Assembly: GCA_037783545.1 (NCBI GenBank)
Contig: JBBELK010001447.1
Location: forward strand, 1 to 64,000
DNA length: 64,000 nt
Direction: 5' to 3'
DNA from: Henricia sp. BOLD:AAB3569
Lineage: Eukaryota > Echinodermata > Asteroidea > Spinulosida > Echinasteridae
The position numbers were made by a program, and so were the translations under genes. The notes under the pieces were generated by a model. It had not been told where the DNA came from. It worked only from the letters and a program-made list of their open reading frames with translations, and made no database searches. Of the stretch, positions 1-44,472 are shown piece after piece. Every line of letters starts with the position of its first letter. Within the stretch, counting starts at the first letter, position 1.

Positions 1-3
1 GGT

Positions 4-14517: not shown

Positions 14518-14626
14518 CAGATTTTCGCTGGGAAATTACGGAGAAATTTCAGAGTTTAGGGAAAACGAAGCTCGGCTACGTGGTTATTCCCCTAACCGTG
14601 GCTGTTGGGACACCCTGCGCCGCGCT
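14403..14626 (+). repeat. Satellite monomer with 49-bp internal deletion
   Basis: This monomer is 224 bp instead of 273. The sequence jumps from GTGTGT directly to AATTCTGCATGC, losing monomer positions of about 64-112, including the 20-bp palindrome. It terminates the open frame to its left. The AATTCTGCATG variant (consensus AATTTTGCATG) also appears at about 13970. Confidence 0.9.
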
Positions 14627-16323
14627 GGTGTACATTTGTACGGCCGTTGACTCACCCCAGATTGTGACGGGAATTAGGTCAAAGTGTGTCCCAAATGCCG
14701 GCAAATTTGGCAATCAAGGAATTTTCCAACCAACTTTAAATTTTGCATGCTCCAAACTGTATATATTCCGCACTTGTCATGCAAAATTGACAGATTTTCG
14801 CTGGGAAATTACGGAGAAATTTCAGAGTTTAGGGAAAACGGAGCTCGGCTACGTGGTTATTCCCCTAACCGTGGCTGTTGGGACACCCTGCGCCGCGCTG
14901 GTGTACATTTGTACGGCCGTTGACTCACCCCAGATTGTGACGGGAATTAGGTCAAAGTGTGTCCCAAATGCCGGCAAATTTGGAAATCAAGGAATTTTCC
15001 AACCAACTTCAAATTTTGCATGCTCCAAACTGTATATATTCCGCACTTGTCATGCAAAATTGACAGATTTTCGCTGGGAAATGACGGAGAAATTTCAGAG
15101 TTTAGGGAAAACGGAGCTCGGCTACGTGGTTATTCCCCTAACCGTGGCTGTTGGGACACCCTGCGCCGCGCTGGTGTACATTTGTACGGCCGTTGACTCA
15201 CCCCAGATTGTGACGGGAATTAGGTCAAAGTGTGTCCCAAATGCCGGCAAATTTGGAAATCAAGTAATTTTCCAACCAACTTCAAATTTTGCATGCTCCA
15301 AACTGTATATATTCCGCACTTGTCATACAAAATTTACAGATTTTCGCTGGGAAGTGACGGAGAAATTTCAGAGTTTAGGGAAAACGGAGCTCGGCTACGT
15401 GGTTATTCCCCTAACCGTGGCTGTTGAGACACACTGCGCCGCGCTGGTGTACATTTGTACGGCCGTTGACTCACCCCAGATTGTGACGGGAATTAGGTCA
15501 AAGTGTGTCCCAAATGCCGGCAAATTTGGAAATCAAGGAATTTTCCAACCAACTTCAAATTTTGCATGCTCCAAACTGTATATATTCCGCACATGTCATG
15601 CAAAATTGACAGATTTTCGCTGGGAAATGACGGAGAAATTTCAGAGTTTAGGGAAAACGGAGCTCGGCTACGTGGTTATTCCCCTAACCGTGGCTGTTGG
15701 GAAACCCTGCGCTGCGCTGGTGTACATTTGTACGGCCGTTGACTCACCCCAGATTGTGACGGGAATTAGGTCAAAGTGTGTCCCAAATGCCGGCAAATTT
15801 GGAAATCGAGGAATTTTCCAACCAACTTCAAATTTTGCATGCTCCAAACTGTATATATTCCGCACTTGTCATGCAAAATTGACAGATTTTCGCTGGGAAA
15901 TGACGGAGAAATTTCAGAGTTTAGGGAAAACGGAGCTCGGCTACGTGGTTATTCCCCTCACCGTGGCTGTTGGGACACCCTGCGCCGCGCTGGTGTACAT
16001 TTGTACGGCCGTTGACTCACCCCAGATTGTGACGGGAATTAGGTCAAAGTGTGTCCCAAATGCCGGCAAATTTGGAAATCAAGGAATTTTCCAACCAACT
16101 TCAAATTTTGCATGCTCCAAACTGTATATATTCCGCACTTGTCATGCAAAATTGACAGATTTTCGCTGGGAAATGACGGAGAAATTTCAGAGTTTAGGGA
16201 AAACGGAGCTCGGCTACGTGGTTATTCCCCTAACCGTGGCTGTTGGGACACCCTGCGCCGCGCTGGTGTACACTTGTACGGCCGTTGACTCACCCCAGAT
16301 TGTGACGGGAATTAGGTCAAAGT

Positions 16324-19300
16324 GTGTCCCAAATGCCGGCAAATTTGGAAATCAAGGAATTTTCCAACCAACTTCGAATTTTGCATGCTCCAAACTGTAT
16401 ATTCCGCACTTGTCATGCAAAATTGACAGATTTTCGCTGGGAAATGACGGAGAAATTTCAGAGTTTAGGGAAAACGGAGCTCGGCTACGTGGTTATTCCC
16501 CTAACCGTGGCTGTTGGGACACCCTGCGCCGCGCTGGTGTACATTTGTACGGCCGTTGACTCACCCCAGATTGTGACGGGAATTAGGTCAAAGTGTGTCC
16601 CAAATGCCGGCAAATTTGGAAATCAAGGAATTTTCCAACCAACTTCAAATTTTGCATGCTCCAAACTGTATATATTCCGCACTTGTCGTGCAAAATTGAC
16701 AGATTTTCGCTGGGAAATTACGGAGAAATTTCAGAGTTTAGGGAAAACGGAGCTCGGCTACGTGGTTATTCCCCTAACCGTGGCTGTTGGGACAGCCTGC
16801 GCCGCGCTGGTGTACATCTGTACGGCCGTTGACTCACCCCAGATTGTGACGGGAATTAGGTCAAAGTGTGTCCCAAATGCCGGCAAATTTGGAAATCAAG
16901 TAATTTTCCAACCAACTTCAAATTTTGCATGCTCCAAACTGTATATATTCCGCACTTGTCATACAAAATTGACAGATTTTCGCTGGGAAGTGATGGAGAA
17001 ATTTCAGAGTTTAGGGAAAACGGAGCTCGGCTATGTGGTTATTCCCCTAACCGTGGCTGTTGAGACACCCTGCGCCGCGCTGGTGTACATTTGTACGGCC
17101 GTTGACTCACCCCAGATTGTGACGGGAATTAGGTCAAAGTGTGTCCCAAATGCCGGCAAATTTGGAAATCAAGGAATTTTCCAACCAACTTCAAATTTTG
17201 CATGCTCCAAACTGTATATATTCCGCACATGTCATGCAAAATTGACAGATTTTCGCTGGGAAATGACGGAGAAATTTCAGAGTTTAGGGAAAACGGAGCT
17301 CGGCTACGTGGTTATTCCCCTAACCGTGGCTGTTGGGACACCCTGCGCTGCGCTGGTGTACATTTGTACGGCCGTTGACTCACCCCAGATTGTGACGGGA
17401 ATTAGGTCAAAGTGTGTCCCAAATGCCGGCAAATTTGGAAATCAAGGAATTTTCCAACCAACTTCAAATTTTGCATGCTCCAAACTGTATATATTCCGCA
17501 CTTGTCATGCAAAATTGACAGATTTTCGCTGGGAAATGACGGAGAAATTTCAGAGTTTAGGGAAAACGGAGCTCGGCTACGTGGTTATTCCCCTAACCGT
17601 GGCTGTTGGGACACCCTGCGCCGCGCTGGTGTACATTTGTACGGCCGTTGACTCACCCCAGATTGTGACGGGAATTAGGTCAAAGTGTGTCCCAAATGCC
17701 GGCAAATTTGGAAATCAAGGAATTTTCCAACCAACTTCAAATTTTGCATGCTCCAAACTGTATATATTCCGCACTTGTCATGCAAAATTGACAGATTTTC
17801 GCTGGGAAATGACGGAGAAATTTCAGAGTTTAGGGAAAACGGAGCTCGGCTACGTTGTTATTCCCCTAACCGTGGCTGTTGGGACACCCTGCGCCGCGCT
17901 GGTGTACATTTGTACGGCCGTTGACTCACCCCAGATTGTGACGGGAATTAGGTCAAAGTGTGTCCCAAATGCCGGCAAATTTGGAAATCAAGGAATTTTC
18001 CAACCAACTTCAAATTTTGCATGCTCCAAACTGTATATTCCGCACTTGTCATGCAAAATTGACAGATTTTCGCTGGGAAATGACGGAGAAATTTTAGAGT
18101 TTAGGGAAAACGGAGCTCGGCTACGTGGTTATTCCCCTAACCGTGGCTGTTGAGACACACTGCGCCGCGCTGGTGTACATTTGTACGGCCGTTGACTCAC
18201 CCCAGATTGTGACGGGAATTAGGTCAAAGTGTGTCCCAAATGCCGGCAAATTTGGAAATCAAGGAATTTTCCAACCAACTTCAAATTTTGCATGCTCCAA
18301 ACTGTATATATTCCGCACATGCCATGCAAAATTGACAGATTTTCGCTGGGAAATGACGGAGAAATTTCAGAGTTTAGGGAAAACGGAGCTCGGCTACGTG
18401 GTTATTCCCCTAACCGTGGCTGTTGGGAAACCCTGCGCTGCGCTGGTGTACATTTGTACGGCCGTTGACTCACCCCAGATTGTGACGGGAATTAGGTCAA
18501 AGTGTGTCCCAAATGCCGGCAAATTTGGAAATCAAGGAATTTTCCAACCAACTTCAAATTTTGCATGCTCCAAACTGTATATATTCCGCACTTGTCATGC
18601 AAAATTGACAGATTTTCGCTGGGAAATGACGGAGAAATTTCAGAGTTTAGGGAAAACGGAGCTCGGCTACGTGGTTATTTCCCTAACCGTGGCTGTTGGG
18701 ACACCCTGCGCCGCGCTGGTGTACATTTGTACGGCCGTTGACTCACCCCAGATTGTGACGGGAATTAGGTCAAAGTGTGTCCCAAATGCCGGCAAATTTG
18801 GAAATCAAGGAATTTTCCAACCAACTTCGAATTTTGCATGCTCCAAACTGTATATTCCGCACTTGTCATGCAAAATTGACAGATTTTCGCTGGGAAATGA
18901 CGGAGAAATTTCAGAGTTTAGGGAAAACGGAGCTCGGCTACGTGGTTATTCCCCTAACTGTGGCTGTTGGGACACCCTGCGCCGCGCTGGTGTACATTTG
19001 TACGGCCGTTGACTCACCCCAGATTGTGACGGGAATTAGGTCAAAGTGTGTCCCAAATGCCGGCAAATTTGGAAATCAAGGAATTTTCCAACCAACTTCA
19101 AATTTTGCATGCTCCAAACTGTATATATTCCGCACTTGTCATGCAAAATTGACAGATTTTCGCTGGGAAATTACGGAGAAATTTCAGAGTTTAGGGAAAA
19201 CGGAGCTCGGCTACGTGGTTATTCCCCTAACCGTGGCTGTTGGGACACCCTGCGCCGCGCTGGTGTACATCTGTACGGCCGTTGACTCACCCCAGATTGT

Positions 19301-21229
19301 GACGGGAATTAGGTCAAAGTGTGTCCCAAATGCCGGCAAATTTGGAAATCAAGTAATTTTCCAACCAACTTCAAATTTTGCATGCTCCAAACTGTATATA
19401 TTCCGCACTTGTCATACAAAATTGACAGATTTTCGCTGGGAAGTGACGGAGAAATTTCAGAGTTTAGGGAAAACGGAGCTCGGCTACGTGGTTATTCCCC
19501 TAACCGTGGCTGTTGAGACACCCTGCGCCGCGCTGGTGTACATTTGTACGGCCGTTGACTCACCCCAGATTGTGACGGGAATTAGGTCAAAGTGTGTCCC
19601 AAATGCCGGCAAATTTGGAAATCAAGGAATTTTCCAACCAACTTCAAATTTTGCATGCTCCAAACTGTATATATTCCGCACATGTCATGCAAAATTGACA
19701 GATTTTCGCTGGGAAATGACGGAGAAATTTCAGAGTTTAGGGAAAACGGAGCTCGGCTACGTGGTTATTCCCCTAACCGTGGCTGTTGGGACACCCTGCG
19801 CTGCGCTGGTGTACATTTGTACGGCCGTTGACTCACCCCAGATTGTGACGGGAATTAGGTCAAAGTGTGTCCCAAATGCCGGCAAATTTGGAAATCAAGG
19901 AATTTTCCAACCAACTTCAAATTTTGCATGCTCCAAACTGTATATATTCCGCACTTGTCATGCAAAATTGACAGATTTTCGCTGGGAAATGACGGAGAAA
20001 TTTCAGAGTTTAGGGAAAACGGAGCTCGGCTACGTGGTTATTCCCCTAACCGTGGCTGTTGGGACACCCTGCGCCGCGCTGGTGTACATTTGTACGGCCG
20101 TTGACTCACCCCAGATTGTGACGGGAATTAGGTCAAAGTGTGTCCCAAATGCCGGCAAATTTGGAAATCAAGGAATTTTCCAACCAACTTCAAATTTTGC
20201 ATGCTCCAAACTGTATATATTCCGCACTTGTCATGCAAAATTGACAGATTTTCGCTGGGAAATGACGGAGAAATTTCAGAGTTTAGGGAAAACGGAGCTC
20301 GGCTACGTTGTTATTCCCCTAACCGTGGCTGTTGGGACACCCTGCGCCGCGCTGGTGTACATTTGTACGGCCGTTGACTCACCCCAGATTGTGACGGGAA
20401 TTAGGTCAAAGTGTGTCCCAAATGCCGGCAAATTTGGAAATCAAGGAATTTTCCAACCAACTTCAAATTTTGCATGCTCCAAACTGTATATTCCGCACTT
20501 GTCATGCAAAATTGACAGATTTTCGCCGGGAAATGACGGAGAAATTTTAGAGTTTAGGGAAAACGGAGCTCGGCTACGTGGTTATTCCCCTAACCGTGGC
20601 TGTTGGGACACCCTGCGCCGCGCTGGTGTACATTTGTACGGCCGTTGACTCACCCCAGATTGTGACGGGAATTAGGTCAAAGTGTGTCCCAAATGCCGGC
20701 AAATTTGGAAATCAAGGAATTTTCCAACCAACTTCAAATTTTGCATGCTCCAAACTGTATATATTCCGCACTTGTCATGCAAAATTGACAGATTTTCGCT
20801 GGGAAATGACGGAGAAATTTCAGAGTTTAGGGAAAACGGAGCTCGGCTACGTGGTTATTCCCCTAACCGTGGCTGTTGGGACACCCTGCGCCGCGCTGGT
20901 GTACATTTGTACGGCCGTTGACTCACCCCAGATTGTGACGGGAATTGGGTCAAAGTGTGTCCCAAATGCCGGCAAATTTGGAAATCAAGGAATTTTCCAA
21001 CCAACTTCAAATTTTGCATGCTCCAAACTGTATATATTCCGCACTTGTCATGCAAAATTGACAGATTTTCGCTGGGAAATGACGGAGAAATTTCAGAGTT
21101 TAGGGAAAACGGAGCTCGGCTACGTGGTTATTCCCCTAACCGTGGCTGTTGGGACACCCTGCGCCGCGCTGGTGTACATTTGTACGGCCGTTGACTCACC
21201 CCAGATTGTGACGGGAATTAGGTCAAAGT
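16324..21229 (+). repeat. 9-mer higher-order repeat, two copies of 2453 bp
   Basis: A 2-bp-shortened motif CTGTATATTCCGC (normally CTGTATATATTCCGC) occurs at 16395, 18031, 18848 and 20484. The first and third, and the second and fourth, are each exactly 2453 bp apart, which is nine monomers minus the two 2-bp deletions. The same order of other variants follows in both copies: GAAATTACGG with CATCTGTACGG, AAGTAATTTTCC with GTCATACAAAA, GAGACACCC, ACATGTCATG, ACGTTGTTATT, and ATTTTAGAGTTT on the short monomer. The second copy ends without the GAGACACAC monomer found at 18151. Confidence 0.9.
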
Positions 21230-23780
21230 GTGTCCCAAATGCCGGCAAATTTGGAAATCAAGGAATTTTCCAACCAACTTCAAATTTTGCATGCTCCAAA
21301 CTGTATATATTCCGCACTTGTCATGCAAAATTGACAGATTTTCGCTGGGAAATGACGGAGAAATTTCAGAGTTTAGGGAAAACGGAGCTCGGCTACGTGG
21401 TTATTCCCCTAACCGTGGCTGTTGGGACACCCTGCGCCGCGCTGGTGTACATTTGTACGGCCGTTGACTCACCCCAGATTGTGACGGGAATTAGGTCAAA
21501 GTGTGTCCCAAATGCCGGCAAATTTGGAAATCAAGGAATGTTCCAACCAACTTCAAATTTTGCATGCTCCAAACTGTATATATTCCGCACTTGTCATGCA
21601 AAATTGACAGATTTTCGCTGGGAAATGACGGAGAAATTTCAGAGTTTAGGGAAAACGGAGCTCGGCTACGTGGTTATTCCCCTAACCGTGGCTGTTGGGA
21701 CACCCTGCGCCCCGCTGGTGTACATTTGTACGGCCGTTGACTCACCCCAGATTGTGACGGGAATTAGGTCAAAGTGTGTCCCAAATGCCGGCAAATTTGG
21801 AAATCAAGGAATTTTCCAACCAACTTCAAATTTTGCATGCTCCAAACTGTATATATTCCGCACTTGTCATGCAAAATTGACAGATTTTCGCTGGGAAATG
21901 ACGGAGAAATTTCAGAGTTTAGGGAAAACGGAGCTCGGCTACGTGGTTATTCCCCTAACCGTGGCTGTTGGGACACCCTGCGCCGCGCTGGTGTACATTT
22001 GTACGGCCGTTGACTCACCCCAGATTGTGACGGGAATTGGGTCAAAGTGTGTCCCAAATGCCGGCAAATTTGGAAATCAAGGAATTTTCCAACCAACTTC
22101 AAATTTTGCATGCTCCAAACTGTATATATTCCGCACTTGTCATGCAAAATTGACAGATTTTCGCTGGGAAATGACGGAGAAATTTCAGAGTTTAGGGAAA
22201 ACGGAGCTCGGCTACGTGGTTATTCCCCTAACCGTGGCTGTTGGGACACCCTGCGCCGCGCTGGTGTACATTTGTACGGCCGTTGACTCACCCCAGATTG
22301 TGACGGGAATTAGGTCAAAGTGTGTCCCAAATGCCGGCAAATTTGGAAATCAAGGAATTTTCCAACCAACTTCAAATTTTGCATGCTCCAAACTGTATAT
22401 ATTCCGCACTTGTCATGCAAAATTGACAGATTTTCGCTTGGAAATTACGGAGAAATTTCAGAGTTTAGGGAAAACGGAGCTCGGCTACGTGGTTATTCCC
22501 CTAACCGTGGCTGTTGGGACACCCTGCGCCGCGCTGGTGTACATTTGTACGGCCGTTGACTCACCCCAGATTGTGACGGGAATTAGGTCAAAGTGTGTCC
22601 CAAATGCCGGCAAATTTGGCAATCAAGGAATTTTCCAACCAACTTTAAATTTTGCATGCTCCAAACTGTATATATTCCGCACTTGTCATGCAAAATTGAC
22701 AGATTTTCGCTGGGAAATTACGGAGAAATTTCAGAGTTTAGGGAAAACGGAGCTCGGCTACGTGGTTATTCCCCTAACCGTGGCTGTTGGGACACCCTGC
22801 GCCGCGCTGGTGTACATTTGTACGGCCGTTGACTCACCCCAGATTGTGACGGGAATTAGGTCAAAGTGTGTCCCAAATGCCGGCAAATTTGGAAATCAAG
22901 GAATTTTCCAACCAACTTCAAATTTTGCATGCTCCAAACTGTATATATTCCGCACTTGTCATGCAAAATTGACAGATTTTCGCTGGGAAATGACGGAGAA
23001 ATTTCAGAGTTTAGGGAAAACGGAGCTCGGCTACGTGGTTATTCCCCTAACCGTGGCTGTTGGGACACCCTGCGCCGCGCTGGTGTACATTTGTACGGCC
23101 GTTGACTCACCCCAGATTGTGACGGGAATTATGTCAAAGTGTGTCCCAAATGCCGGCAAATTTGGAAATCAAGGAATTTTCCAACCAACTTCAAATTTTG
23201 CATGCTCCAAACTGTATATATTCCGCACTTGTCATGCAAAATTGACAGATTTTCGCTGGGAAATGACGGAGAAATTTCAGAGTTTAGGGAAAACGGAGCT
23301 CGGCTACATGGTTATTCCCCTAACCGTGGCTGTTGGGACACCCTGCGCCCCGCTGGTGTACATTTGTACGGCCGTTGACTCACCCCAGATTGTGACGGGA
23401 ATTAGGTCAAAGTGTGTCCCAAATGCCGGCAAATTTGGAAATCAAGGAATTTTCCAACCAACTTCAAATTTTGCATGCTCCAAACTGTATATATTCCGCA
23501 CTTGTCATGCAAAATTGACAGATTTTCGCTGGGAAATGACGGAGAAATTTCAGAGTTTAGGGAAAACGGAGCTCGGCTACGTGGTTATTCCCCTAACCGT
23601 GGCTGTTGGGACACCCTGCGCCGCGCTGGTGTACATTTGTACGGCCGTTGACTCACCCCAGATTGTGACGGGAATTAGGTCAAAGTGTGTCCCAAATGCC
23701 GGCAAATTTGGAAATCAAGGAATTTTCCAACCAACTTCAAATTTTGCATGCTCCAAACTGTATATATTCCGCACTTGTCA
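21230..23780 (+). repeat. Highly homogeneous satellite stretch
   Basis: Nine to ten monomers with very few differences and exact 273-bp spacing. Rare markers show recent local copying: AATTGGGTC at about 20945 and 22037 (1092 bp apart), and GCCCCGCTGG at about 21710 and 23348 (1638 bp, six monomers). Near identity implies the most recent homogenisation in the plus arm. Confidence 0.8.
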
Positions 23781-25611
23781 TGCAAATTGACAGATTTTCG
23801 CTGGGAAATGACGGAGAAATTTCAGAGTTTAGGGAAAACGGAGCTCGGCTACGTGGTTATTCCCCTAACCGTGGCTGTTGGGACAACCCCTGCGCCGCGC
23901 TGGTGTACATTTGTACGGCCGTTGACTCACCCCAGATTGTGACGGGAAATTAGGTCAAAGTGTGTCCCAAATGCCGGCAAATTTGGAAATCAAGGAATTT
24001 TCCAACCAACTTCAAATTTTGCATGCTCCAAACTGTATATATTCCGCACTTGTCATGCAAAATTGACAGATTTTCGCTGGTAAATGACGGAGAAATTTCA
24101 GAGTTTAGGGAAAACAGAGCTCGGCTACGTGGTTATTCCCCTAACCGTGGCTGTTGGGACACCCTGCGCCGCGCTGGTGTACATTTGTACGGCCGTTGAC
24201 TCACCCCAGATTGTGACGGGAATTAGGTCAAAGTGTGTCCCAAATGCCGGCAAATTTGGAAATCAAGGAATGTTCCAACCAACTTCAAATTTTGCATGCT
24301 CCAAACTGTATATATTCCGCACTTGTCATGCAAAATTGACAGATTTTCGCTGGGAAATGACGGAGAAATTTCAGAGTTTAGGGAAAACGGAGCTCGGCTA
24401 CGTGGTTATTTTCCTAACCTGTGGCTGTTGGGACACCCTGCGCCGCGCTGGTGTACATTTGTACGGCCGTTGACTCACCCCAGATTGTGACGGGAATTAG
24501 GTCAAAGTGTGTCCCAAATGCCGGCAAATTTGGAAATCAAGGAATTTTCCAACCAACTTCAAATTTTGCATGCTCCAAACTGTATATATTCCGCACTTGT
24601 CATGCAAAATTGACAGATTTTCGCTGGGAAATGACGGAGAAATTTCAGAGTTTAGGGAAAACGGAGCTCGGCTACGTTGTTATTCCCCTAACCGTGGCTG
24701 TTGGGACACCCTGCGCCGCGCTGGTGTACATTGTACGGCCGTTGACTCACCCCAGATTGTGACGGGAATTAGGTCAAAGTGTGTCCCAAATGCCGGCAAA
24801 TTTGGAAATCAAGGAATTTTCCAACCAACTTCAAATTTTGCATGCTCCAAACTGTATATATTTCCGCACTTGTCATGCAAAATTGACAGATTTTCGCTGG
24901 GAAATTACGGAGAAATTTCAGAGTTTAGGGAAAACGGAGCTCGGCTACGTGGTTATTCCCCTAACCGTGGCTTTGGGACACCCTGCGCCGCGCTGGTGTA
25001 CATTTGTACGGCCGTTGACTCACCCAGATTGTGACGGGAATTAGGTCAAAGTGTGTCCCAAATGCCGGCAAATTTGGCAATCAAGGAATTTTCCAACCAA
25101 CTTTAAATTTTGCATGCTCCAAACTGTATATATTCCGCACTTGTCATGCAAAATTGACAGATTTTCGCTGGGAAATTACGGAGAAATTTCAGAGTTTAGG
25201 GGAAAACGGAGCTCGGCTACGTGGTTATTCCCCCTAACCGTGGCTGTTGGGACACCCTGCGCCGCGCTGGTGTACATTTGTACGGCCGTTGACTCACCCC
25301 AGATTGTGACGGGAATTAGGTCAAAGTGTGTCCCAAATGCCGGCAAATTTGGAAATCAAGGAATTTTCCAACCAACTTCAAATATTTTGCATGCTCCAAA
25401 CTGTATATATTCCGCACTTGTCATGCAAAATTGACAGATTTTCGCTGGGAAATGACGGAGAAATTTCAGAGTTTAGGGAAAACGGAGCTCGGCTACGTGG
25501 TTATTCCCCTAACCGTGGCTGTTGGACACCCTGCGCCGCGCTGGTGTACATTTGTACGGCCGTTGACTCACCCCAGATTGTGACGGGAATTAGGTCAAAG
25601 TGTGTCCCAAA

Positions 25612-25614
25612 TGC
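25612..25614. other. Satellite inversion junction (orientation flips from plus to minus)
   Basis: Plus-orientation sequence runs to TGTGTCCCAAATGC and would normally continue CGGCAAATTTGG. Instead it continues GGAATATACAGTTTGGAGC, the monomer in reverse orientation (normally AAGTGCGGAATATATACAG). The two parents share only TGC at the joint. The first reversed copy has the 2-bp-short GGAATATACAG, the reverse complement of the rare CTGTATATTCC variant of the 9-mer HOR. Everything to the left of this point apart from the transposon is plus, and everything to the right is minus. The joint sits inside an indel-rich stretch, so an assembly misjoin is possible. Confidence 0.9.
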
Positions 25615-28600
25615 GGAATATACAGTTTGGAGCATGCAAAATTTGAAGTTGGTTGGAAAATTCCTTGATTTCCAAATTTGCCGGCATTTGGGACACACTT
25701 TGACCTAATTCCCATCACAATCTGGGGTGAGTCAACGGCCGTACAAATGTACACCAGCGCGGCGCAGGGGTGTCCCAACAGCCACGGTTAGGGGAATAAC
25801 CACGTAGCCGAGCTCCGTTTTTCCCTAAACTCTGAAATTTCTCCGTCATTTCCCAGCGAAAATCTGTCAATTTTGCATGACAAGTGCGGAATATATACAG
25901 TTTGGAGCATGAAAATTTGAAGTTGGTTGGAAAATTCCTTGATTTCCAAATTTGCCGGCATTTGGGACACACTTTGACCTAATTCCCGTCACAATCTGGG
26001 GTGAGTCAACGGCCGTACAAATGTACACCAGCGCGGCGCAGGGTGTCCCAACAGCCACGGTTAGGGGAATAACCACGTAGCCGAGCTCCGTTTTCCCTAA
26101 ACTCTGAAATTTCTCCGTCATTTCCCAGCGAAAATCTGTCAATTGTGCATGACAAGTGCGGAATATAAACAGTTTGGAGCATGCAAAATTTGAAGTTGGT
26201 TGGAAAATTCCTTGATTTCCAAATTTGCCGGCATTTGGGACACACTTTGACCTAATTCCCGTCACAATCTGGGGTGAGTCAACGGCCGTACAAATGTACA
26301 CCAGCGCGGCGCAGGGTGTCCCAACAGCCACGGTTAGGGGAATAACCACGTAGCCGAGCTCCGTTTTCCCTAAACTCTGAAATTTCTCCGTCATTTCCCA
26401 GCGAAAATCTGTCAATTTTGCATGACAAGTGCGGGAATATATACAGTTTGGAGCATGCAACATTTGAAGTTGGTTGGAAAATTCCTTGATTTCCAAATTT
26501 GCCGGCATTTGGGACACACTTTGACCTAATTCCCGTCACAATCTGGGGTGAGTCAACGGCCGTACAAATGTACACCAGCGCGGCGCAGGGTGTCCCAACA
26601 GCCTACGGTTAAGGGAATAACCACGTAGCCGAGCTCCGTTTTCCCTAAACTCTGAAATTTCTCCGTCATTTCCCAGCGAAAATCTGTCAATTTTGCATGA
26701 CAAGTGCGGAATATATACAGTTTGGAGCATGCAAAATTTGAAGTTGGTTGGAAAATTCCTTGATTTCCAAATTTGCCGGCATTTGGGACACACTTTGACC
26801 TAATTCCCGTCACAATCTGGGGTGAGTCAACGGCCGTACAAATGTACACCAGCGCAGCGCAGGGTGTCCCAACAGCCACGGTTAGGGGAATAACCACGTA
26901 GCCGAGCTCCGTTTTCCCTAAACTCTGAATTTCTCCGTCATTTCCCAGCGAAAATCTGTCAATTTTGCATGACAAGTGCGGAATATATACAGTTTGGAGA
27001 ATGCTAAATTTGAAGTTGGTTGGAAAATTCCTTGATTTCCAAATTTGCCGGCATTTGGGACACACTTTGACCTAATTCCCGTCACAATCTGGGGTGAGTC
27101 AACGGCCGTACAAATGTACACCAGCGCGGCGCAGGGTGTCCCAACAGCCACGGTTAGGGGAATAACCACGTAGCCGAGCTCCGTTTTCCCTAAACTCTGA
27201 AATTTCTCCGTCATTTCCCAGCGAAAATCTGTCAATTTTGAATGACAAGTGCGGAATATATACAGTTTGGAGCATGCCAAAATTTGAAGTTGGTTGGAAA
27301 ATTCCTTGATTTCCAAATTTGCCGGCATTTGGGACACACTTTGACCTAATTCCCGTCACAATCTAGGGTGAGTCAACGGCCGTACAAATGTACACCAGCG
27401 CGGCGCAGGGTGTCCCAACAGCCACGGTTAGGGGAATAACCACGTAGCCGAGCTCCGTTTTCCCTAAACTCTGAAATTTCTCCGTCATTTCCCAGCGAAA
27501 ATCTGTCAATTTTGCATGACAAGTGGGGAATATATACAGTTTGGAGCATGCAAAATTTGAAGTTGGTTGGAAAATTCCTTGATTTCCAAATTTGCCGGCA
27601 TTTGGGACACACTTTGACCTAATTCCCGTCACAATCTGGGGTGAGTCAACGGCCGTACAAATGTACACCAGCGCGGCGCAGGGTGTCCCAACAGCCACGG
27701 TTAGGGGAATAACCACGTAGCCGAGCTCCGTTTTCCCTAAACTCTGAAATTTCTCCGTCATTTCCCAGCGAAATCTGTCAATTTTGCATGACAAGTGCGG
27801 AAATATATACAGTTTGGAGCATGCAAAATTTGAAGTTGGTTGGAAAATTCCTTGATTTCCAATTTGCCGGCATTTGGGACACACTTTGACCTAATTCCCG
27901 TCACAATCTGGGGTTAGTCAACGGCCGTACAAATGTACACCAGCGCGGCGCAGGGTGTCCCAACAGCCACGGTTAGGTGAATAACCACGTAGCCGAGCTC
28001 CGTTTTCCCTAAACTCTGAAATTTCTCCGTCATTTCCCAGCGAAAATCTGTCAATTTTGCATGACAAGTGCGGAATATAAACAGTTTGGAGCATGCAAAA
28101 TTTGAAGTTGGTTGGAAAATTCCTTGATTTCCAAATTTACCGGCATTTGGGACACACTTTGACCTAATTCCCGTCACAATCTGGGGTTAGTCAACGGCCG
28201 TACAAATGTACACCAGCGCGGCGCAGGGTGTCCCAACAGCCACGGTTAGGGGAATAACCACGTAGCCGAGCTCCGTTTTCCCTAAACTCTGAAATTTCTC
28301 CGTCATTTCCAGCGAAAATCTGTCAATTTTGCATGACAAGTGCGGAATATAAACAGTTTGGAGCATGCAAAATTTGAAGTTGGTTGGAAAATTCCTTGAT
28401 TTCCAAATTTACCGGCATTTGGGACACACTTTGACCTAATTCCCCGTCACAATCTGGGTGAGTCAACGGCCGTACAAATGTACACCAGCGCGGCGCAGGG
28501 TGTCCCAACAGCCACGGTTAGGTGAATAACCACGTAGCCGAGCTCCGTTTTCCCTAAACTCTGAAATTTCTCCGTCATTTCCCAGCGAAAATCTGTCAAT

Positions 28601-31600
28601 TTTGCATGACAAGTGCGGAATATAAACAGTTTGGAGCATGCAAAATTTGAAGTTGGTTGGAAAATTCCTTGATTTCCAAATTTACCGGCATTTGGGACAC
28701 ACTTTGACCTAATTCCCGTCACAATCTGGGGTGAGTCAACGGCCGTACAAATGTACACCAGCGCGGCGCAGGGTGTCCCAACAGCCACGGTTAGGGGAAT
28801 AACCACGTAGCCGAGCTCCGTTTTCCCTAAACTCTGAAATTTCTCCGTCATTTCCCAGCGAAAATCTGTCAATTTTGCATGACAAGTGCGGAATATAAAC
28901 AGTTGGGAGCATGCAAAATTTGAAGTTGGTTGGAAAATTCCTTGATTTTCCAAATTTACCGGCATTTGGGACACACTTTGACCTAATTCCCGTCACTAAT
29001 CTGGGGTGAGTCAACGGCCGTACAAATGTACACCAGCGCGGCGCAGGGTGTCCCAACAGCCACGGTTAGGGAATAACCACGTAGCCGAGCTCCGTTTTCC
29101 CTAAACTCTGAAATTTCTCCGTCATTTCCCAGCGAAATCTGTCAATTTTGCATGACAAGTGCGGAATATAAACAGTTTGGAGCATGCAAAATTTGAAGTT
29201 GGTTGGAAAATTCCTTGATTTCCAATTTACCGGCATTTGGGACACACTTTGACCTAATTCCCGTCACAATCTGGGGTGAGTCAACGGCCGTACAAATGTA
29301 CACCAGCGCGGCGCAGGGTGTCCCAACAGCCACGGTTAGCGGGAATAACCACGTAGCCGAGCTCCGTTTTCCTAAACTCTGAAATTTCTCCGTCATTTCC
29401 CAGCGAAATCTGTCAATTTTGCATGACAAGTGCGGAATATAAACAGTTTGGAGCATGCAAAATTTGAAGTTGGTTGGAAAATTCCTTGATTTCCAAATTT
29501 ACCGGCATTTGGGACACACTTTGACCTAATTCCCGTCACAATCTGGGGTGAGTCAACGGCCGTACAAATGTACACCAGCGCGGCGCAGGGTGTCCCAACA
29601 GCCACGGTTAGGGGAATAACCACGTAGCCGAGCTCCGTTTTCCCTAAACTCTGAAATTTCTCCGTCATTTCCCAGCGAAAATCTGTCAATTTTGCATGAC
29701 AAGTGCGGATTATATACAGTTGGGAGCATGCAAAATTTGAAGTTGGTTGGAAAAATTCCTTGATTTTCAAATTTACCGGCATTTGGGACACACTTTGACC
29801 TAATTCCCGTCATAATCTGGGGTGAGTCAACGGCCGTACAAATGTACACCAGCGCGGCGCAGGGTGTCCCAACAGCCACGGTTAGCGGAATAACCACGTA
29901 GCCGAGCTCCGTTTTCCTAAACTCTGAAATTTCTCCGTCATTTCCCAGCGAAAATCTGTCAATTTTGCATGACAAGTGCGGAATATAAACAGTTTGGAGC
30001 ATGCAAAATTTGAAGTTGGTTGGAAAATTCCTTGATTTCCAAATTTACCGGCATTTGGGACACACTTTGACCTAATTCCCGTCACAATCTGGGGTGAGTC
30101 AACGGCCGTACAAATGTACACCAGCGCGGCGCAGGGTGTCCCAACAGCCACGGTTAGGGGAATAACCACGTAGCCGAGCTCCGTTTTCCCTAAACTCTCA
30201 AATTTCTCCGTCATTTCCAGCGAAAATCTGTCAATTTTGCATGACAAGTGCGGGAATATATACAGTTTGGAGCATGCAAAATTTGAAGTTGGTTGGAAAA
30301 TTCCTTGATTTCCAAATTTACCGGCATTTGGGACACACTTTGACCTAATTCCCGTCACAATCTGGGGTGAGTCAACGGCCGTACAAATGTACACCAGCGC
30401 GGCGCAGGGTGTCCCAACAGCCACGGTTAGGTGAATAACCACGTAGCCGAGCTCCGTTTTCCCTAAACTCTGAAATTTCTCCGTCATTTCCCAGCGAAAA
30501 TCTGTCAATTTTGCATGACAAGTGCGGAATATAAACAGTTTGGAGCATGCAAAATTTGAAGTTGGTTGGAAAATTCCTTGATTTCCAAATTTACCGGCAT
30601 TTGGGACACACTTTGACCTAATTCCCGTCACAATCTGGGTGAGTCAACGGCCGTACAAATGTACACCAGCGCGGCGCAGGGTGTCCCAACAGCCACGGTT
30701 AGGGGAATAACCACGTAGCCGAGCTCCGTTTTCCCTAAACTCTGAAATTTCTCCGTCATTTCCCAGCGAAAATCTGTCAATTTTGCATGACAAGTGCGGA
30801 TTATATACAGTTGGGAGCATGCAAAATTTGAAGTTGGTTGGAAAATTCCTTGATTTTCAAATTTACCGGCATTTGGGACACACTTTGACCTAATTCCCGT
30901 CATAATCTGGGGTGAGTCAACGGCCGTACAAATGTACACCAGCGCGGCGCAGGGTGTCCCAACAGCCACGGTTAGGGGAATAACACGTAGCCGAGCTCCG
31001 TTTTCCTAAACTCTGAAATTTCTCCGTCATTTCCCAGCGAAAATCTGTCAATTTTGCATGACAAGTGCGGAATATAAACAGTTTGGAGCATGCAAAATTT
31101 GAAGTTGGTTGGAAAATTCCTTGATTTCCAAATTTACCGGCATTTGGGACACACTTTGACCTAATTCCCGTCACAATCTGGGGTGAGTCAACGGCCGTAC
31201 AAATGTACACCAGCGCGGCGCAGGGTGTCCCAACAGCCACGGTTAGGGGAATAACCACGTAGCCGAGCTCCGTTTTCCCTAAACTCTGAAATTTCTCCGT
31301 CATTTCCCAGCGAAAATCTGTCAATTTTGCATGACAAGTGCGGAATATAAACAGTTTGGAGCATGCAAAATTTGAAGTTGGTTGGAAAATTCCTTGATTT
31401 CCAAATTTACCGGCATTTGGGACACACTTTGACCTAATTCCCGTCATAATCTGGGGTGAGTCAACGGCCGTACAAATGTACACCAGCGCGGCGCAGGGTG
31501 TCCCAACAGCCACGGTTAGGGGAATAACCACGTAGCCGAGCTCCGTTTTCCCTAAACTCTGAAATTTCTCCGTCATTTCCCAGCGAAAATCTGTCAATTT

Positions 31601-31727
31601 TGCATGACAAGTGCGGAATATAAACAGTTTGGAGCATGCAAAATTTGAAGTTGGTTGGAAAATTCCTTGATTTCCAAATTTACCGGCATTTGGGACACAC
31701 TTTGACCTAATTCCCGTCACAATCTGG
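25615..31727 (-). repeat. Indel-rich minus array with tetramer HOR
   Basis: Many monomers differ by single-base gains or losses. Rare markers repeat at tetramer spacing: GGATTATATACAGTTGGG at about 29707 and 30797 (1090 bp), and CCCGTCATAATCTGG at about 29807 and 30897 (1090 bp), then 31441 (two further monomers). Nonsense changes in the otherwise open frame occur at 27363-27365, 27914-27916 and 28187-28189. Confidence 0.8.
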
Positions 31728-32589
31728 GGTGAGTCAACGGCCGTACAAATGTACACCAGCGCGGCGCAGGGTGTCCCAACAGCCACGGTTAGGGGAATAA
31801 CCACGTAGCCGAGCTCCGTTTTCCCTAAACTCTCAAATTTCTCCGTCATTTCCCAGCGAAAATCTGTCAATTTTGCATGACAAGTGGGGAATATATACAG
31901 TTTGGAGCATGCAAAATTTGACGTTGGTTGGAAAATTCCTTGATTTCCCATTTGGGACACACTTTGACCTAATTCCCGTCACAATCTGGGGTGAGTCAAC
32001 GGCCGTACAAATGTACACCAGCGCGGCGCAGGGTGTCCCAACAGCCACGGTTAGGGGAATAACCACGTAGCCGAGCTCCGTTTTCCCTAAACTCTGAAAT
32101 TTCTCCGTCATTTCCCAGCGAAAATCTGTCAATTTTGCATGACAAGTGCGGAATATATACAGTTTGGAGCATGCAAAATTTGAAGTTGGTTGGAAAATTC
32201 TTTGATTTCCAAATTTGCCGGCATTTGGGACACACTTTGACCTAAATCCCGTCACAATCTGGGGTGAGTCAACGGCCGTACAAATGTACACCAGCGCGGC
32301 GCAGGGTGTCCCAACAGCCACGGTTAGGGTAATAACCACGTAGCCGAGCTCCGTTTTCCCTAAACTCTGAAATTTCTCCGTCATTTCCCAGCGAAAATCT
32401 GTCAATTTTGCATGACAAGTGCGGATTATATACAGTTGGGAGCATGCAAAATTTGAAGTTGGTTGGAAAATTCCTTGATTTTCAAATTTACCGGCATTTG
32501 GGACACACTTTGACCTAATTCCCGTCACAATCTGGGGTGAGTCAACGGCCGTACAAATGTACACCAGCGCGGCGCAGGGTGTCCCAACA

Positions 32590-32625
32590 GCCACGGTTAG
32601 GGGAATAGCCACGGTTAGGGGAATA
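32590..32625 (-). repeat. 18-bp tandem duplication inside a monomer (copy 1)
   Basis: GCCACGGTTAGGGGAATA occurs twice in a row, lengthening this monomer to 291 bp, and is followed by ACCATGTAG instead of ACCACGTAG. The same private duplication occurs in the related monomers at 43059 and 44437, which makes it a good lineage marker for the super-block. Confidence 0.92.
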
Positions 32626-35160
32626 ACCATGTAGCCGAGCTCCGTTTTCCCTAAACTCTGAAATTTCTCCGTCATTTCCCAGCGAAAATCTGTCAATTTT
32701 GCATGACAAGTGCGGAATATATACAGTTTGGAGCATGCACATTTTGAAGTTGGTTGGAAAATTCCTTGATTTCCAAATTTGCCGGCATTTGGGACACACT
32801 TTGACCTAATTCCCGTCACAATCTGGGGTGAGTCAACGGCCGTACAAATGTACACCAGCGCGGCGCAGGGTGTCCCAACAGCCACGGTTAGGGGAATAAC
32901 CACGTAGCCGAGCTCCGTTTTCCCTAAACTCTGAAATTTCTCCGTCATTTCCAAGCGAAAATCTGTCAATTTTGCATGACAAGTGCGGAATATATACAGT
33001 TTGGAGCATGCAAAATTTGAAGTTGGTTGGAAAATTCCTTGATTTCCAAATTTGCCGGCATTTGGGACACACTTTGACCTAATTCCCGTCACAATCTGGG
33101 GTGAGTCAACGGCCGTACAAATGTACACCAGCGCAGCGCAGGGTGTCCCAACAGCCACGGTTAGGGGAATAACCACATAGCCGAGCTCCGTTTTCCCTAA
33201 ACTCTGAAATTTCTCCGTCATTTCCCAGCGAAAATCTGTCAATTTTGCATGACAAGTGCGGAATATATACAGTTTGGAGAATGCTAAATTTGAAGTTGGT
33301 TGGAAAATTCCTTGATTTCCAAATTTGCCGGCATTTGGGACACACTTTGACCTAATTCCCGTCACAATCTGGGGTGAGTCAACGGCCGTACAAATGTACA
33401 CCAGCGCGGCGCAGGGTGTCCCAACAGCCACGGTTAGGGGAATAACCACGTAGCCGAGCTCCGTTTTCCCTAAACTCTGAAATTTCTCCGTCATTTCCCA
33501 GCGAAAATCTGTCAATTTTGCATGACAAGTGCGGAATATATACAGTTTGGAGCATGCACATTTTGAAGTTGGTTGGAAAATTCCTTGATTTCCAAATTTG
33601 CCGGCATTTGGGACACACTTTGACCTAATTCCCGTCACAATCTGGGGTGAGTCAACGGCCGTACAAATGTACACCAGCGCGGCGCAGGGTGTCCCAACAG
33701 CCACGGTTAGGGGAATAACCACGTAGCCGAGCTCCGTTTTCCCTAAACTCTGAAACTTCTCCGTCATTTCCCAGCGAAAATCTGTCAATTTTGCATGACA
33801 AGTGCGGAATATATACAGTTTGGAGCATGCAAAATTTGAAGTTGGTTGGAAAATTCCTTGATTTCCAAATTTGCCGGCATTTGGGACACACTTTGACCTA
33901 ATTCCCGTCACAATCTGGGGTGAGTCAACGGCCGTACAAATGTACACCAGCGCGGCGCAGGGTGTCCCAACAGCCACGGTTAGGGGCAATAACCACGTAG
34001 CCGAGCTCCGTTTTCCCTAAACTCTGAAATTTCTCCGTCATTTCCCAGCGAAAATCTGTCAATTTTGCATGACAAGTGCGGAATATATACAGTTTGGAGC
34101 ATTGAAAATTTGAAGTTGGTTGGAAAATTCCTTGATTTCCAAATTTGCCGGCATTTGGGACACACTTTGACCTAATTCCCGTCACAATCTGGGGTGAGTC
34201 AACGGCCGTACAAATGTACACCAGCGCGGCGCAGGGTGTCCCAACAGCCACGGTTAGGGGAATAACCACGTAGCCGAGCTCCGTTTTCCCTAAACTCTGA
34301 AATTTCTCCGTCATTTCCCAGCGAAAATCTGTCAATTGTGCATGACAAGTGCGGAATATAAACAGTTTGGAGCATGCAAAATTTGAAGTTGGTTGGAAAA
34401 TTCCTTGATTTCCAAATTTACCGGCATTTGGGACACACTTTGACCTAATTCCCGTCACAATCTGGGGTGAGTCAACGGCCGTACAAATGTACACCAGCGC
34501 GGCGCAGGGTGTCCCAACAGCCACGGTTAGGGGAATAACCACGTAGCCGAGCTCCGTTTTCCCTAAACTCTGAAATTTCTCCGTCATTTCCCAGCGAAAA
34601 TCTGTCAATTGTGCATGACAAGTGCGGAATATATACAGTTTGGAGCATGCAAAATTTGAAGTTGGTTGGAAAATTCCTTGATTTCCAAATTTACCGGCAT
34701 TTGGGACACACTTTGACCTAATTCCCGTCACAATCTGGGGTGAGTCAACGGCCGTACAGATGTACACCAGCGCGGCGCAGGGTGTCCCAACAGCCACGGT
34801 TAGGGGAATAACCACGTAGCCGAGCTCCGTTTTCCCTAAACTCTGAAATTTCTCCGTCATTTCCAAGCGAAAATCTGTCAATTTTGCATGACAAGTGCGG
34901 AATATATACAGTTTGGAGCATGCAAAATTTGAAGTTGGTTGGAAAATTCCTTGATTTCCAAATTTGCCGGCATTTGGGACACACTTTGACCTAATTCCCG
35001 TCACAATCTGGGGTGAGTCAACGGCCGTACAAATGTACACCAGCGCAGCGCAGGGTGTCCCAACAGCCACGGTTAGGGGAATAACCACGTAGCCGAGCTC
35101 CGTTTTCCCTAAACTCTGAAATTTCTCCGTAATTTCCCAGCGAAAATCTGTCAATTTTGC

Positions 35161-35320
35161 ATGACAAGTGCGGAATATATACAGTTTGGAGAATGCTAAA
35201 TTTGAAGTTGGTTGGAAAATTCCTTGATTTCCAAATTTGCATGACAAGTGCGGAATATATACAGTTTGGAGCATGCAAAATTTGAAGTTGGTTGGAAAAT
35301 TCCTTGATTTCCAAATTTGC
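35161..35320 (-). repeat. 80-bp partial monomer insertion (copy 1)
   Basis: An F-type monomer (GAATGCTAAA) runs to CCAAATTTGC and then jumps back to ATGACAAGTGCGG, repeating 80 bp (35241-35320) before continuing. The extra 80 bp is near-consensus (GCATGCAAAA) and not F-type, so it came from a different monomer. The joint lies at TTTGC shared by both partners and next to the monomer's 11-bp inverted repeat. The identical joint recurs at 46268. Confidence 0.92.
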
Positions 35321-35363
35321 CGGCATTTGGGACACACTTTGACCTAATTCCGTCACAATCTGG

Positions 35364-37001
35364 GGTGAGTCAACGGCCGTACAAATGTACACCAGCGCAG
35401 CGCAGGGTGTCCCAACAGCCACGGTTAGGGGAATAACCACGTAGCCGAGCTCCGTTTTCCCTAAACTCTGAAATTTCTCCGTCATTTCCCAGCGAAAATC
35501 TGTCAATTTTGCATGACAAGTGCGGAATATATACAGTTTGGAGAATGCTAAATTTGAAGTTGGTTGGAAAATTCCTTGATTTCCAAATTTGCCGGCATTT
35601 GGGACACACTTTGACCTAATTCCCGTCACAATCTGGGGTGAGTCAACGGCCGTACAAATGTACACCAGCGCGGCGCAGGGTGTCCCAACAGCCACGGTTA
35701 GGGGAATAACCACGTAGCCGAGCTCCGTTTTCCCTAAACTCTGAAATTTCTCCGTCATTTCCCAGCGAAAATCTGTCAATTTTGCATGACAAGTGCGGAA
35801 TATATACAGTTTGGAGCATGCACATTTTGAAGTTGGTTGGAAAATTCCTTGATTTCCAAATTTGCCGGCATTTGGGACACACTTTGACCTAATTCCCGTC
35901 ACAATCTGGGGTGAGTCAACGGCCGTACAAATGTACACCAGCGCGGCGCAGGGTGTCCCAACAGCCACGGTTAGGGGAATAACCACGTAGCCGAGCTCCG
36001 TTTTCCCTAAACTCTGAAACTTCTCCGTCATTTCCCAGCGAAAATCTGTCAATTTTGCATGACAAGTGCGGAATATATACAGTTTGGAGCATGCAAAATT
36101 TGAAGTTGGTTGGAAAATTCCTTGATTTCCAAATTTGCCGGCATTTGGGACACACTTTGACCTAATTCCCGTCACAATCTGGGGTGAGTCAACGGCCGTA
36201 CAAATGTACACCAGCCGCGGCGCAGGGTGTCCCAACAGCCACGGTTAGGGGAATAACCACGTAGCCGAGCTCCGTTTTCCCTAAACTCTGAAATGTCTCC
36301 GTCATTTCCCAGCGAAAATCTGTCAATTTTGCATGACAAGTGCGGAATATATACAGTTTGGAGCATTGAACATTTGAAGTTGGTTGGAAAATTCCTTGAT
36401 TTCCCAAATTGCCGGCATTTGGGACACACTTTGACCTAATTCCCGTCACAATCTGGGGTGAGTCAACGGCCGTACAAATGTACACCAGCGCGGCGCAGGG
36501 TGTCCCAACAGCCACGGTTAGGGAATAACCACGTAGCCGAGCTCCGTTTTCCCTAAACTCTGAAATTTCTCCGTCATTTCCCAGCGAAAATCTGTCTAAT
36601 TGTGCATGACAAGTGCGGAATATAAACAGTTTGGAGCATGCAAAATTTGAAGTTGGTTGGAAAATTCCTTGATTTCCAAATTTACCGGCATTTGGGACAC
36701 ACTTTGACCTAATTCCCGTCACAATCTGGGGTGAGTCAACGGCCGTACAAATGTACACCAGCGCGGCGCAGGGTGTCCCAACAGCCACGGTTAGGGGAAT
36801 AACCACGTAGCCGAGCTCCGTTTTCCCTAAACTCTGAAATTTCTCCGTCATTTCCAAGCGAAAATCTGTCAATTTTGCATGACAAGTGCGGAATATATAC
36901 AGTTTGGAGCATGCAAAATTTGAAGTTGGTTGGAAAAATTCCTTGATTTCCAAATTTGCCGGCATTTGGGACACACTTTGACCTAATTCCCCGTCACAAT
37001 C
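35364..37001 (-). repeat. Hexamer HOR F-G-H-I-J-E, first of four occurrences
   Basis: Six consecutive variant monomers (about 1638 bp) in the order F, G, H, I (with GCATTGAACATT), J, E. The same six-step order starts again at about 39460, 46392 and 51306. The last two starts are exactly 4914 bp (18 monomers) apart. This is the clearest repeating HOR unit of the minus arm. Confidence 0.85.
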
Positions 37002-38095
37002 TGGGGTGAGTCAACGGCCGTACAAATGTACACCAGCGCAGCGCAGGGTGTCCAACAGCCACGGTTAGGGGAAGATAACCACGTAGCGAGCTCCGTTTTC
37101 CCTAAACTCTGAAATTTCTCCGTCATTTCCCAGCGAAAATCTGTCAATTTTGCATGACAAGTGCGGAATATATACAGTTTGGAGAATGCTAAATTTGAAG
37201 TTGTTGGAAATTCCTTGATTTCCAAATTTGCCGGCATTTGGGACACACTTTGACCTAATTCCCGTCACAATCTGGGGTGAGTCAACGGCCGTACAAATGT
37301 ACACCAGCGCGGCGCAGGGTGTCCCAACAGCCACGGTTAGGGGAATAACCACGTAGCCGAGCTCCGTTTTCCCTAAACTCTGAAATTTCTCCGTCATTTC
37401 CCAGCGAAAATCTGTCAATTTTGCATGACAAGTGCGGAATATATACAGTTTGGAGCATGCAAAATTTGAAGTTGGTTGGAAAATTCCTTGATTCCAAATT
37501 TGCCGGCATTTGGGACACACTTTGACCTAATTCCCGTCACAATCTGGGGTGAGTCAACGGCCGTACAAATGTACACCAGCGCGGCGCAGGGTGTCCCAAC
37601 AGCCACGGTTAGGGGAATAACCACGTAGCCGAGCTCCGTTTTCCCTAAACTCTGAAATTTCTCCGTCATTTCCCAGCGAAAATCTGTCAATTTTGCATGA
37701 CAAGTGCGGAATATATACAGTTTGGAGCATTGAAAATTTGAAGTTGGTTGGAAATTTCCTTGATTTCCAATTTGCCGGCATTTGGGACACACTTTGACCT
37801 AATTCCCGTCACAATCTGGGGTGAGGTCAACGGCCGTACAAATGTACACCAGCGCGGCGCAGGGTGTCCCAACAGCCACGGTCTAGGGGAATAACCACGT
37901 AGCCGAGCTCCGTTTTCCCTAAACTCTGAAATTTCTCCGTCATTTCCCAGCGAAAATCTGTCAATTTGTGCATGACAAGTGCGGAATATAAACAGTTTGG
38001 AGCATGCAAAATTTGAAGTTGGTTGGAAAATTCCTTGATTTCCAAATTTACCGGCATTTGGGACACACTTTGACCTAAATCCCGTCACAATCTGG

Positions 38096-41000: not shown

Positions 41001-42185
41001 GGAGCATGCAAAATTTGAAGTTGGTTGGAAAATTCCTTGATTTCCAAATTTGCCGGCATTTGGGACACACTTTGACCTAATTCCCGTCACAATCTGGGGT
41101 GAGTCAACGGCCGTACAAATGTACACCAGCGCAGCGCAGGGTGTCCCAACAGCCACGGTTAGGGGAATAACCACGTAGCCGAGCTCCGTTTTCCCTAAAC
41201 TCTGAAATTTCTCCGTCATTTCCCAGCGAAAATCTGTCAATTTTGCATGACAAGTGCGGAATATATACAGTTTGGAGAATGCAAAATTTGAAGTTGGTTG
41301 GAAAATTCCTTGATTTCCAAATTTGCCGGCATTTGGGACACACTTTGACTAATTCCCGTCACAATCTGGGTGAGTCAACGGCCGTACAAATGTACACCAG
41401 CGCGGCGCAGGGTGTCCCAACAGCCACGGTTAGGGGAATAACCACGTAGCCGAGCTCCGTTTTCCCTAAACTCTGAAATATCTCGTCATTTCCCAGCGAA
41501 AATCTGTCAATTTTGCATGACAAGTGCGGAATATATACAGTTTGGAGCATGCAAAATTTGAAGTTGGTTGGAAAATTCCTTGATTTCCAAATTTGCCGGC
41601 ATTTGGGACACAGTTTGACCTAATTCCCGTCACAATCTGGGGTGAGTCAACGGCCGTACGAATGTACACCAGCGCGGCGCAGCGTGTCCCAACAGCCACG
41701 GTTAGGGGAATAACCACGTAGCCGAGCTCCGTTTTCCCTAAACTCTGAAATTTCTCCGTCATTTCCCAGCGAAAATCTGTCAATTTTGCATGACAAGTGC
41801 GGAATATATACAGTTTGGAGCATGCAAATTTGAAGTTGGTTGGAAAATTCCTTGATTTCCAAATTTGCCGGCATTTGGGACACACTTTGACCTAATTCCC
41901 GTCACAATCTGGCGTGAGTCAACGGCCGTACAAATGTACACCAGCGCAGCGCAGGGTGTCCCAACAGCCACGGTTAGGGGAATAACCACGTAGCCGAGCT
42001 CCGTTTTCCCTAAACTCTGAAATTTCTCCGTCATTTCCCAGCGAAAATCTGTCAATTTTGCATGACAAGTGCCGAATATATACAGTTTGGAGCATGCAAA
42101 ATTTGAAGTTGGTTGGAAAATTCCTTGATTTCCAAATTTACCGGCATTTGGGACACACTTTGACCTAATTCCCGTCACAATCTGG
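38096..42185 (-). repeat. Indel-rich minus array between super-blocks
   Basis: About 15 monomers, including a second F-G-H-I-J-E run from about 39460, then less distinctive monomers with private variants (GTACGAATG at about 41656, CAGCGTGTCC at 41681, GTGCCGAAT at 42069). Single-base losses are frequent, for example at about 38204, 38851, 39100, 40873 and 41350. GTGCCGAAT also occurs at about 54466 with TCTGGCGTGAG in the neighbouring unit, showing a shared origin. Confidence 0.8.
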
Positions 42186-44436: not shown

Positions 44437-44472
44437 GCCACGGTTAGGGGAATAGCCACGGTTAGGGGAATA
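44437..44472 (-). repeat. 18-bp tandem duplication inside a monomer (copy 2b)
   Basis: Two intact units at 44437-44454 and 44455-44472, followed by ACCATGTAG. The surrounding monomers are in the same B C D E order as at 32 kb and 43 kb. Confidence 0.92.

What the first reader, a model, noticed from the sequence alone, without database searches (positions are those of the whole stretch)
25560..25720. Satellite array flips orientation at a 3-bp microhomology, making a giant inverted repeat
Monomers left of 25612 are all plus and right of 25614 all minus, joined at TGC with about 69 bp between the facing arms. Plus arm and minus arm share the consensus but not the order of variants, so the arms are not mirror copies. 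The first reversed monomer has the rare 2-bp-short GGAATATACAG motif known only from the plus-arm 9-mer HOR. Orientation switches are described at centromere and satellite array boundaries, and a palindrome this size could be an expansion centre or a fragile site. The joint lies in an indel-rich stretch, so a misjoin is a live alternative.
Basis: partly seen in the sequence, partly recalled or inferred. Interest (0 to 1): 0.72.

Follow-up and report, generated by a model that had tools for sequence, protein, structure and literature searches.

The report
Satellite DNA array that reverses direction

Summary
A 273-bp satellite runs plus to 25614 and minus from 25615 to the end of the 73,478-bp contig. 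The sides share a 3-bp TGC and face each other across a 69-bp loop; the arms are 97.5-97.9% identical over the 1-5 kb measured. It is not a fold-back copy: of 47 substitutions in the first 20 full reversed monomers, 1 occurs in the inner plus arm and 38 in the rest of the minus arm. The junction 26-mer occurs once in 740.7 Mb.

Whether it is real cannot be settled from sequence. It lies in a 7.6-kb stretch rich in homopolymer indels (38 one-base indels in 27 monomers, against 0 in 53 to the left). 81 of 232 monomers lie in such stretches, as do 4 of 6 satellite contig ends seen. Among listed places, 2 of 55 contigs show both orientations; the other, C28, has an 8-kb spacer.

I favour a real microhomology end-join at 0.5, and a chimera or butt-join of contig ends at 0.45. 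Neither is a new kind: inverted satellite subarrays are reported in Tribolium and human.

The parts
1..4251 (+). Plus arm, outer part, 273-bp satellite
   Evidence: TRF; k-mer orientation
4251..7452 (.). Insert in plus arm: 3.2-kb element with terminal inverted repeats, flanked by a 10-bp direct repeat CACTTGTCAT of the satellite
7453..25614 (+). Plus arm, inner part
23629..31213 (.). Indel-rich stretch, probably of low consensus quality, that holds the joint
   Evidence: 38 one-base indels in 27 monomers, 32 of them in homopolymers
25612..25614 (.). Joint: TGC shared by both sides (consensus position 71 plus / 143 minus)
25615..25683 (.). 69-bp spacer (loop) between facing arms; begins with the 2-bp-short GGAATATACAG
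25615..64000 (-). Minus arm, continuing past the window to contig base 73478 with one insert

Best explanation
A genuine but ordinary orientation switch inside a satellite block. A double-strand break or stalled fork in one array was rejoined end-to-end, through a 3-bp microhomology, to the opposite strand of another part of the same satellite family (microhomology end-joining or fork template switching). It left an inverted repeat of at least 18 kb per arm with a 69-bp loop. Because inverted copies do not pair in register for unequal exchange, each side then homogenised on its own, which is why the variant repertoire changes at the joint. Shown: the joint, the microhomology, the non-mirrored arms, the largely separate repertoires. 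Inferred: that the molecule exists in the organism, the repair route, and the later history.
For: The joint has 3 bp of microhomology; 5.6% of random inverted site pairs in this monomer have 3 or more, 1.7% if each distinct join is counted once. It lies 2.0 kb inside the indel-rich patch, not at a seam between clean and poor sequence. It is not a fold-back: 1 of 47 right-flank substitutions occurs in the inner plus arm and 38 in the rest of the minus arm; of 18 left-flank substitutions 14 recur in the rest of the inner plus arm (but 8 also occur in the minus arm). The best match of the left flank other than itself, among the 40 candidates scored, is the same plus arm one HOR back, at 99%. Both arms are of one subtype: 0 of 240 monomers carry 210G, 254T or 266G and 1 carries 223G. 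Net distance between plus and minus parts is 0.25-0.84 per monomer, against 0.70-1.54 to the nearest other array (C28 plus) and 1.15 or more to the rest; the two ranges overlap a little. Array blocks of opposite orientation also face each other in C28 across 8 kb of other sequence, with clean satellite at both edges.
Against: The joint sits in an indel-rich stretch of the kind thin coverage gives. It is unique in the genome. Among the places listed, only C28 of 54 other multi-place contigs is mixed. The contig is satellite from end to end apart from two inserts that look like mobile elements, so it has no unique anchor. The shared subtype is a common one (its 63-mer occurs 9432 times; the C1411 locus has it too), so sharing it is weak evidence of linkage. 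The two arms in C28 differ by a fixed site (210A>G, 0.00 versus 1.00), so that contig is not a close parallel.
Confidence: 0.5

Rival explanations
1. Artefact: a chimeric library molecule, or two low-quality contig ends butted together in gap closing, joined two separate satellite molecules in opposite orientation.
For: The joint lies in the indel-rich stretch 23629-31213. 4 of the 6 satellite contig ends seen (C1447 right, C28 left, C49 left, C1400 left; not C1447 left or C1400 right) carry the same indel signature, as expected if two such ends were fused. The junction is unique and 53 of 55 contigs keep one orientation at the places listed. Variant sharing across the joint is the lowest in the contig (0.08 against a median of 0.69 over 150 points). 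Inverted chimeras, most with 2-21 nt of matching sequence, are typical of multiple displacement amplification (PMC1855051, abstract).
Against: 35% of monomers (81 of 232) lie in such stretches anyway, and one of these stretches holds an insert flanked by a 10-bp direct repeat of the satellite, as a target duplication would be, so indel-rich stretches can be contiguous. Repertoire boundaries nearly as sharp or sharper also occur in clean, same-orientation array (C1447 12.5-13.6 kb, C49 22.1 kb, C1400 49.8 kb). A blunt butt-join has 3 or more bp of microhomology only about 1 time in 18. An amplified library should have given many such joints; no other direct one was seen in the four contigs read.
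Confidence: 0.45
2. Fold-back read artefact or inverted duplication, in which the minus arm is a copy of the plus arm.
For: The arms are 97.5-97.9% identical and the loop is only 69 bp.
Against: Best mirrored-order agreement with the inner plus arm is 1 of 47 substitutions at any offset; ordinary divergence between any two monomers of this contig explains the identity.
Confidence: 0.05

Closest known systems
Macro-dyad symmetries of Tribolium satellites (PMC13081366; abstract and passages seen)
   Same: Satellite arrays that change monomer orientation and form palindrome-like structures of a few to tens of kb (longest annotated 75 kb).
   Different: There the inversion sites are conserved and frequent, two satellites are intermingled, and the authors checked raw HiFi reads. 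Here the junction is unique, one satellite is involved, the switch is rare among the places listed, and no reads are at hand.
Mosaic inversion structure of human beta-satellite and HSat arrays (PMC9186530; passages seen)
   Same: Orientation changes within satellite arrays of a complete genome.
   Different: Human arrays are described as having a mosaic inversion structure; here one direct switch in 73 kb.
Long-read fold-back and chimeric artefacts (PMC12870357, passages seen; MDA chimeras, PMC1855051, abstract)
   Same: Inverted join; short matching sequence at the junction for MDA chimeras.
   Different: Fold-backs map the second segment within 200 bp of the first on the opposite strand; here the variants of the two sides differ.

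Membership tests
Satellite macro-dyad / inverted subarrays | Two long subarrays of one satellite in opposite orientation in one array | tested here: met
   in the assembly only
Satellite macro-dyad / inverted subarrays | Conserved, recurrent inversion-site sequence (as in T. madens) | tested here: not met
   junction 26-mer: 1 forward, 0 reverse in 740.7 Mb, exact matches only
Satellite macro-dyad / inverted subarrays | Confirmed on single raw molecules | not testable with these tools
   no reads available
Fold-back read artefact | Second segment is the reverse copy of the first | tested here: not met
   1 of 47 substitutions shared at best mirrored offset
MDA-type inverted chimera | Inverted join primed at 2-21 matching nt in amplified DNA | tested here: inconclusive
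   inverted, 3 bp; whether the library was amplified is unknown
Low-coverage misjoin | Joint in sequence of lowered consensus quality | tested here: met
   by indel density as a stand-in for coverage; but 81 of 232 monomers are in such stretches

The most novel reading that the evidence does not exclude
The monomer consensus carries an 11-bp inverted repeat (AATTTTGCATG / CATGCAAAATT, 28-nt loop with the monomer's one TATATA). If this extrudes as a hairpin it could be a recurrent break point: the minus-side inversion breakpoint and 3 of the 5 inserts seen lie in or at the edge of that loop. The satellite would then carry its own breakage site, which drives both orientation switches and mobile-element landing.
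Probability: 0.1. Interest if true: 0.5.

Novelty: new member of a known kind. Interest (0 to 1): 0.27.

Why it matters
If real, it adds one more genome (unnamed; no call identifies the species) to those where satellite arrays reverse at a base-resolved joint, and suggests that homogenisation respects orientation, since the variant repertoire changes at the joint. If false, it is a caution that kilobase palindromes in satellite contigs should be checked against local indel density before being called structures.

Tried and rejected
Fold-back or inverted duplication: rejected by variant order. Derivation of the first reversed monomer from the plus-arm HOR: not supported, since the motif is in other contigs and the unit has a variant that 0 of 240 other C1447 monomers have. 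An exact allele elsewhere: the closest outside match to the right flank among 40 scored candidates, C1411 at 99%, is near-consensus sequence without the flank's substitutions; the closest outside match to the left flank among 40 scored, C1598 at 98%, lacks 83A>C and 109C>T. Sharp change of variants as proof of a misjoin: dropped, because sharp changes occur in clean, same-orientation array too (share below 0.2 at 16 of 132 rich and 45 of 500 clean positions). Shared subtype as proof of linkage: weakened. Rfam on 4000-8000: nothing at gathering score. Papers on a 273-bp satellite: one search listed 3 of 4 papers, none opened; by title and abstract start they concern other subjects. Searches were searches of which I used only the papers named. 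PMC10164571 (inverted repeats and rearrangement in yeast) was opened for its abstract only and not relied on. Species not identified.

Full report
WHAT IS THERE. The window is bases 1-64000 of contig C1447 (73,478 bp) in an assembly of 740.7 Mb and 2104 contigs. It is a 273-bp satellite; TRF gives 97-98% matches in the plus parts and 93% over the minus part of the window. The consensus of 46 plus units and that of 88 minus units are identical. Orientation is plus to 25614 and minus from there to the contig end, broken only by two inserts. The joint reads AAATGC|GGAATATACAG: TGC (25612-25614) fits both sides. Facing arms are 97.5% identical over 1 kb and 97.9% over 5 kb, with a 69-bp loop.

NOT A MIRROR COPY. 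Each monomer was compared with the consensus. The first 20 full reversed monomers carry 47 substitutions; 1 is also found in the inner plus arm and 38 in the rest of the minus arm. Best agreement in mirrored order is 1. Of 18 substitutions in the last 12 plus monomers, 14 recur in the rest of the inner plus arm and 8 occur in the minus arm. 133A>T, for instance, is in 24 of 141 monomers of the inner minus arm and in none of the others of this contig, but a 31-mer with it occurs 263 times genome-wide, so it is not private to C1447.

ARRAY SUBTYPES. Arrays carry near-fixed markers: C1400 and the C113 loci have 210G, 254T and 266G; C28 minus has 210G in all and 266T in 76% of monomers, and C2007 both in 4 of 5; C28 plus has 266T in 94%; C49 has 223G, and so have the 2 monomers read of C1950. 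In C1447 0 of 240 monomers have 210G, 254T or 266G, 1 has 223G, and 34 have 266T. Net distance between plus and minus parts of C1447 is 0.25-0.84 per monomer, somewhat more than between parts of the plus arm (-0.07 to 0.45) and much like parts of the minus arm (0.17-0.53), against 0.70-1.54 for C28 plus and 1.15 or more for the others; the part beyond the second insert is further off (0.74-1.08 from the plus parts). This would suggest one block, but the unmarked subtype is common: its 63-mer occurs 3880 times forward and 5552 reverse. So it is weak evidence.

QUALITY OF THE JOINT'S SURROUNDINGS. One-base indels are almost absent over most of the array but cluster in four stretches. The one at 23629-31213 has 38 in 27 monomers, 32 of them in homopolymers; the clean stretch 8944-23629 has 0 in 53. 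Substitutions are not raised there (2.11 versus 2.45 per monomer), though they are in the stretch at 2459-8679 (4.70). In all, 81 of 232 monomers lie in indel-rich stretches. I read this as thin read coverage; no reads were available to show it. The same mark is found at 4 of the 6 satellite contig ends that I could see. So the patch could be two fused contig ends, or simply a thinly covered stretch; the stretch at 2459-8679 holds an insert flanked by a 10-bp direct repeat and is therefore probably contiguous.

VARIANT BOUNDARY. Sharing of variants across a point is lowest in C1447 at the joint (0.08; median 0.69 over 150 points) and was as low at 3 of 281 points away from it, all in C1400. 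With shorter windows, lows as deep appear in clean, same-orientation array, including C1447 12.5-13.6 kb. It is compatible with separate homogenisation and with a misjoin, and decides nothing.

HOW RARE. The junction 26-mer occurs once in the genome. Satellite places printed fall in 121 contigs; in 55 the places are at least 1 kb apart, and 2 of these (C1447 and C28) show both orientations; of 27 with places at least 10 kb apart, the same 2 do. These are the best or first-listed matches, not a full scan, and not every listed row was entered. In C28 the plus and minus arrays are separated by 29423-37393 of other sequence and differ by a fixed site.

MECHANISM. A joint without sequence overlap should not come from ordinary overlap assembly of reads (general knowledge of overlap assemblers); it needs a molecule that holds it, or a butt-join in finishing. 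In favour of a repair joint: 3 bp of microhomology (5.6% of random inverted site pairs have 3 or more). Amplification chimeras share that mark (PMC1855051, abstract), but such a library should show many inversions. Weighing patch (about 3:1 towards artefact) against microhomology (about 6:1 away from a blunt butt-join, on a frequency of microhomology in real joints that I recall and did not look up), I put real at 0.5, artefact at 0.45 and a fold-back or inverted duplication at 0.05.

HAIRPIN. The monomer has an 11-bp perfect inverted repeat with a 28-nt loop; 0 of 200 first-order shuffles reached 11, and 3 reached 10. The minus-side breakpoint (consensus 143) and three of five insert sites (131-153) lie in or at the edge of this loop; the other two inserts and the plus-side breakpoint (71) do not. 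This was noticed after the fact. Folding one monomer (24720-24995) as DNA gives z -1.65, with 14 of 200 shuffles as stable, so the whole monomer is not unusually structured.

KNOWN KIND. Tribolium macro-dyads (PMC13081366, abstract and passages) and human BSat/HSat mosaic inversions (PMC9186530, passages) are the same sort of structure. The Tribolium paper says that macro-dyad symmetries formed by satellite arrays had been documented only in that genus, which sits uneasily with the human report. Nothing here shows function.

Noticed in passing
window 4251-7452: Insert with imperfect terminal inverted repeats (38 nt, 82%) flanked by a 10-bp direct repeat CACTTGTCAT; longest stop-to-stop frame that lies wholly inside it is 93 aa, internal CGATTCCTTA-rich repeats; looks like a non-autonomous DNA transposon.
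   Followed up: partly
C1447 64578-68301 (L010 about 678-4401): Non-LTR retrotransposon with an endonuclease and reverse transcriptase frame of 1243 aa without stop (the frame starts in flanking satellite), minus strand, its ATA/TAA repeats abutting the satellite's TATATA.
   Followed up: partly
window 31.7-47.5 kb: Rare 18-bp and 80-bp internal duplications each occur twice, 11.85 and 11.03 kb apart, so a multi-monomer block seems to have been copied with a difference of 3 monomers; an indel-rich stretch lies between.
   Followed up: partly
C28 29423-37393 (L013-L014): 8-kb spacer with its own inverted and tandem repeats separates plus and minus arrays of different subtype.
   Followed up: no
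C1447 12.5-13.6 kb: Sharp change of variant repertoire without orientation change, in clean sequence.
   Followed up: no
G000: Near-fixed subtype markers by array (210, 223, 254, 266) suggest block- or chromosome-specific homogenisation of this satellite.
   Followed up: partly
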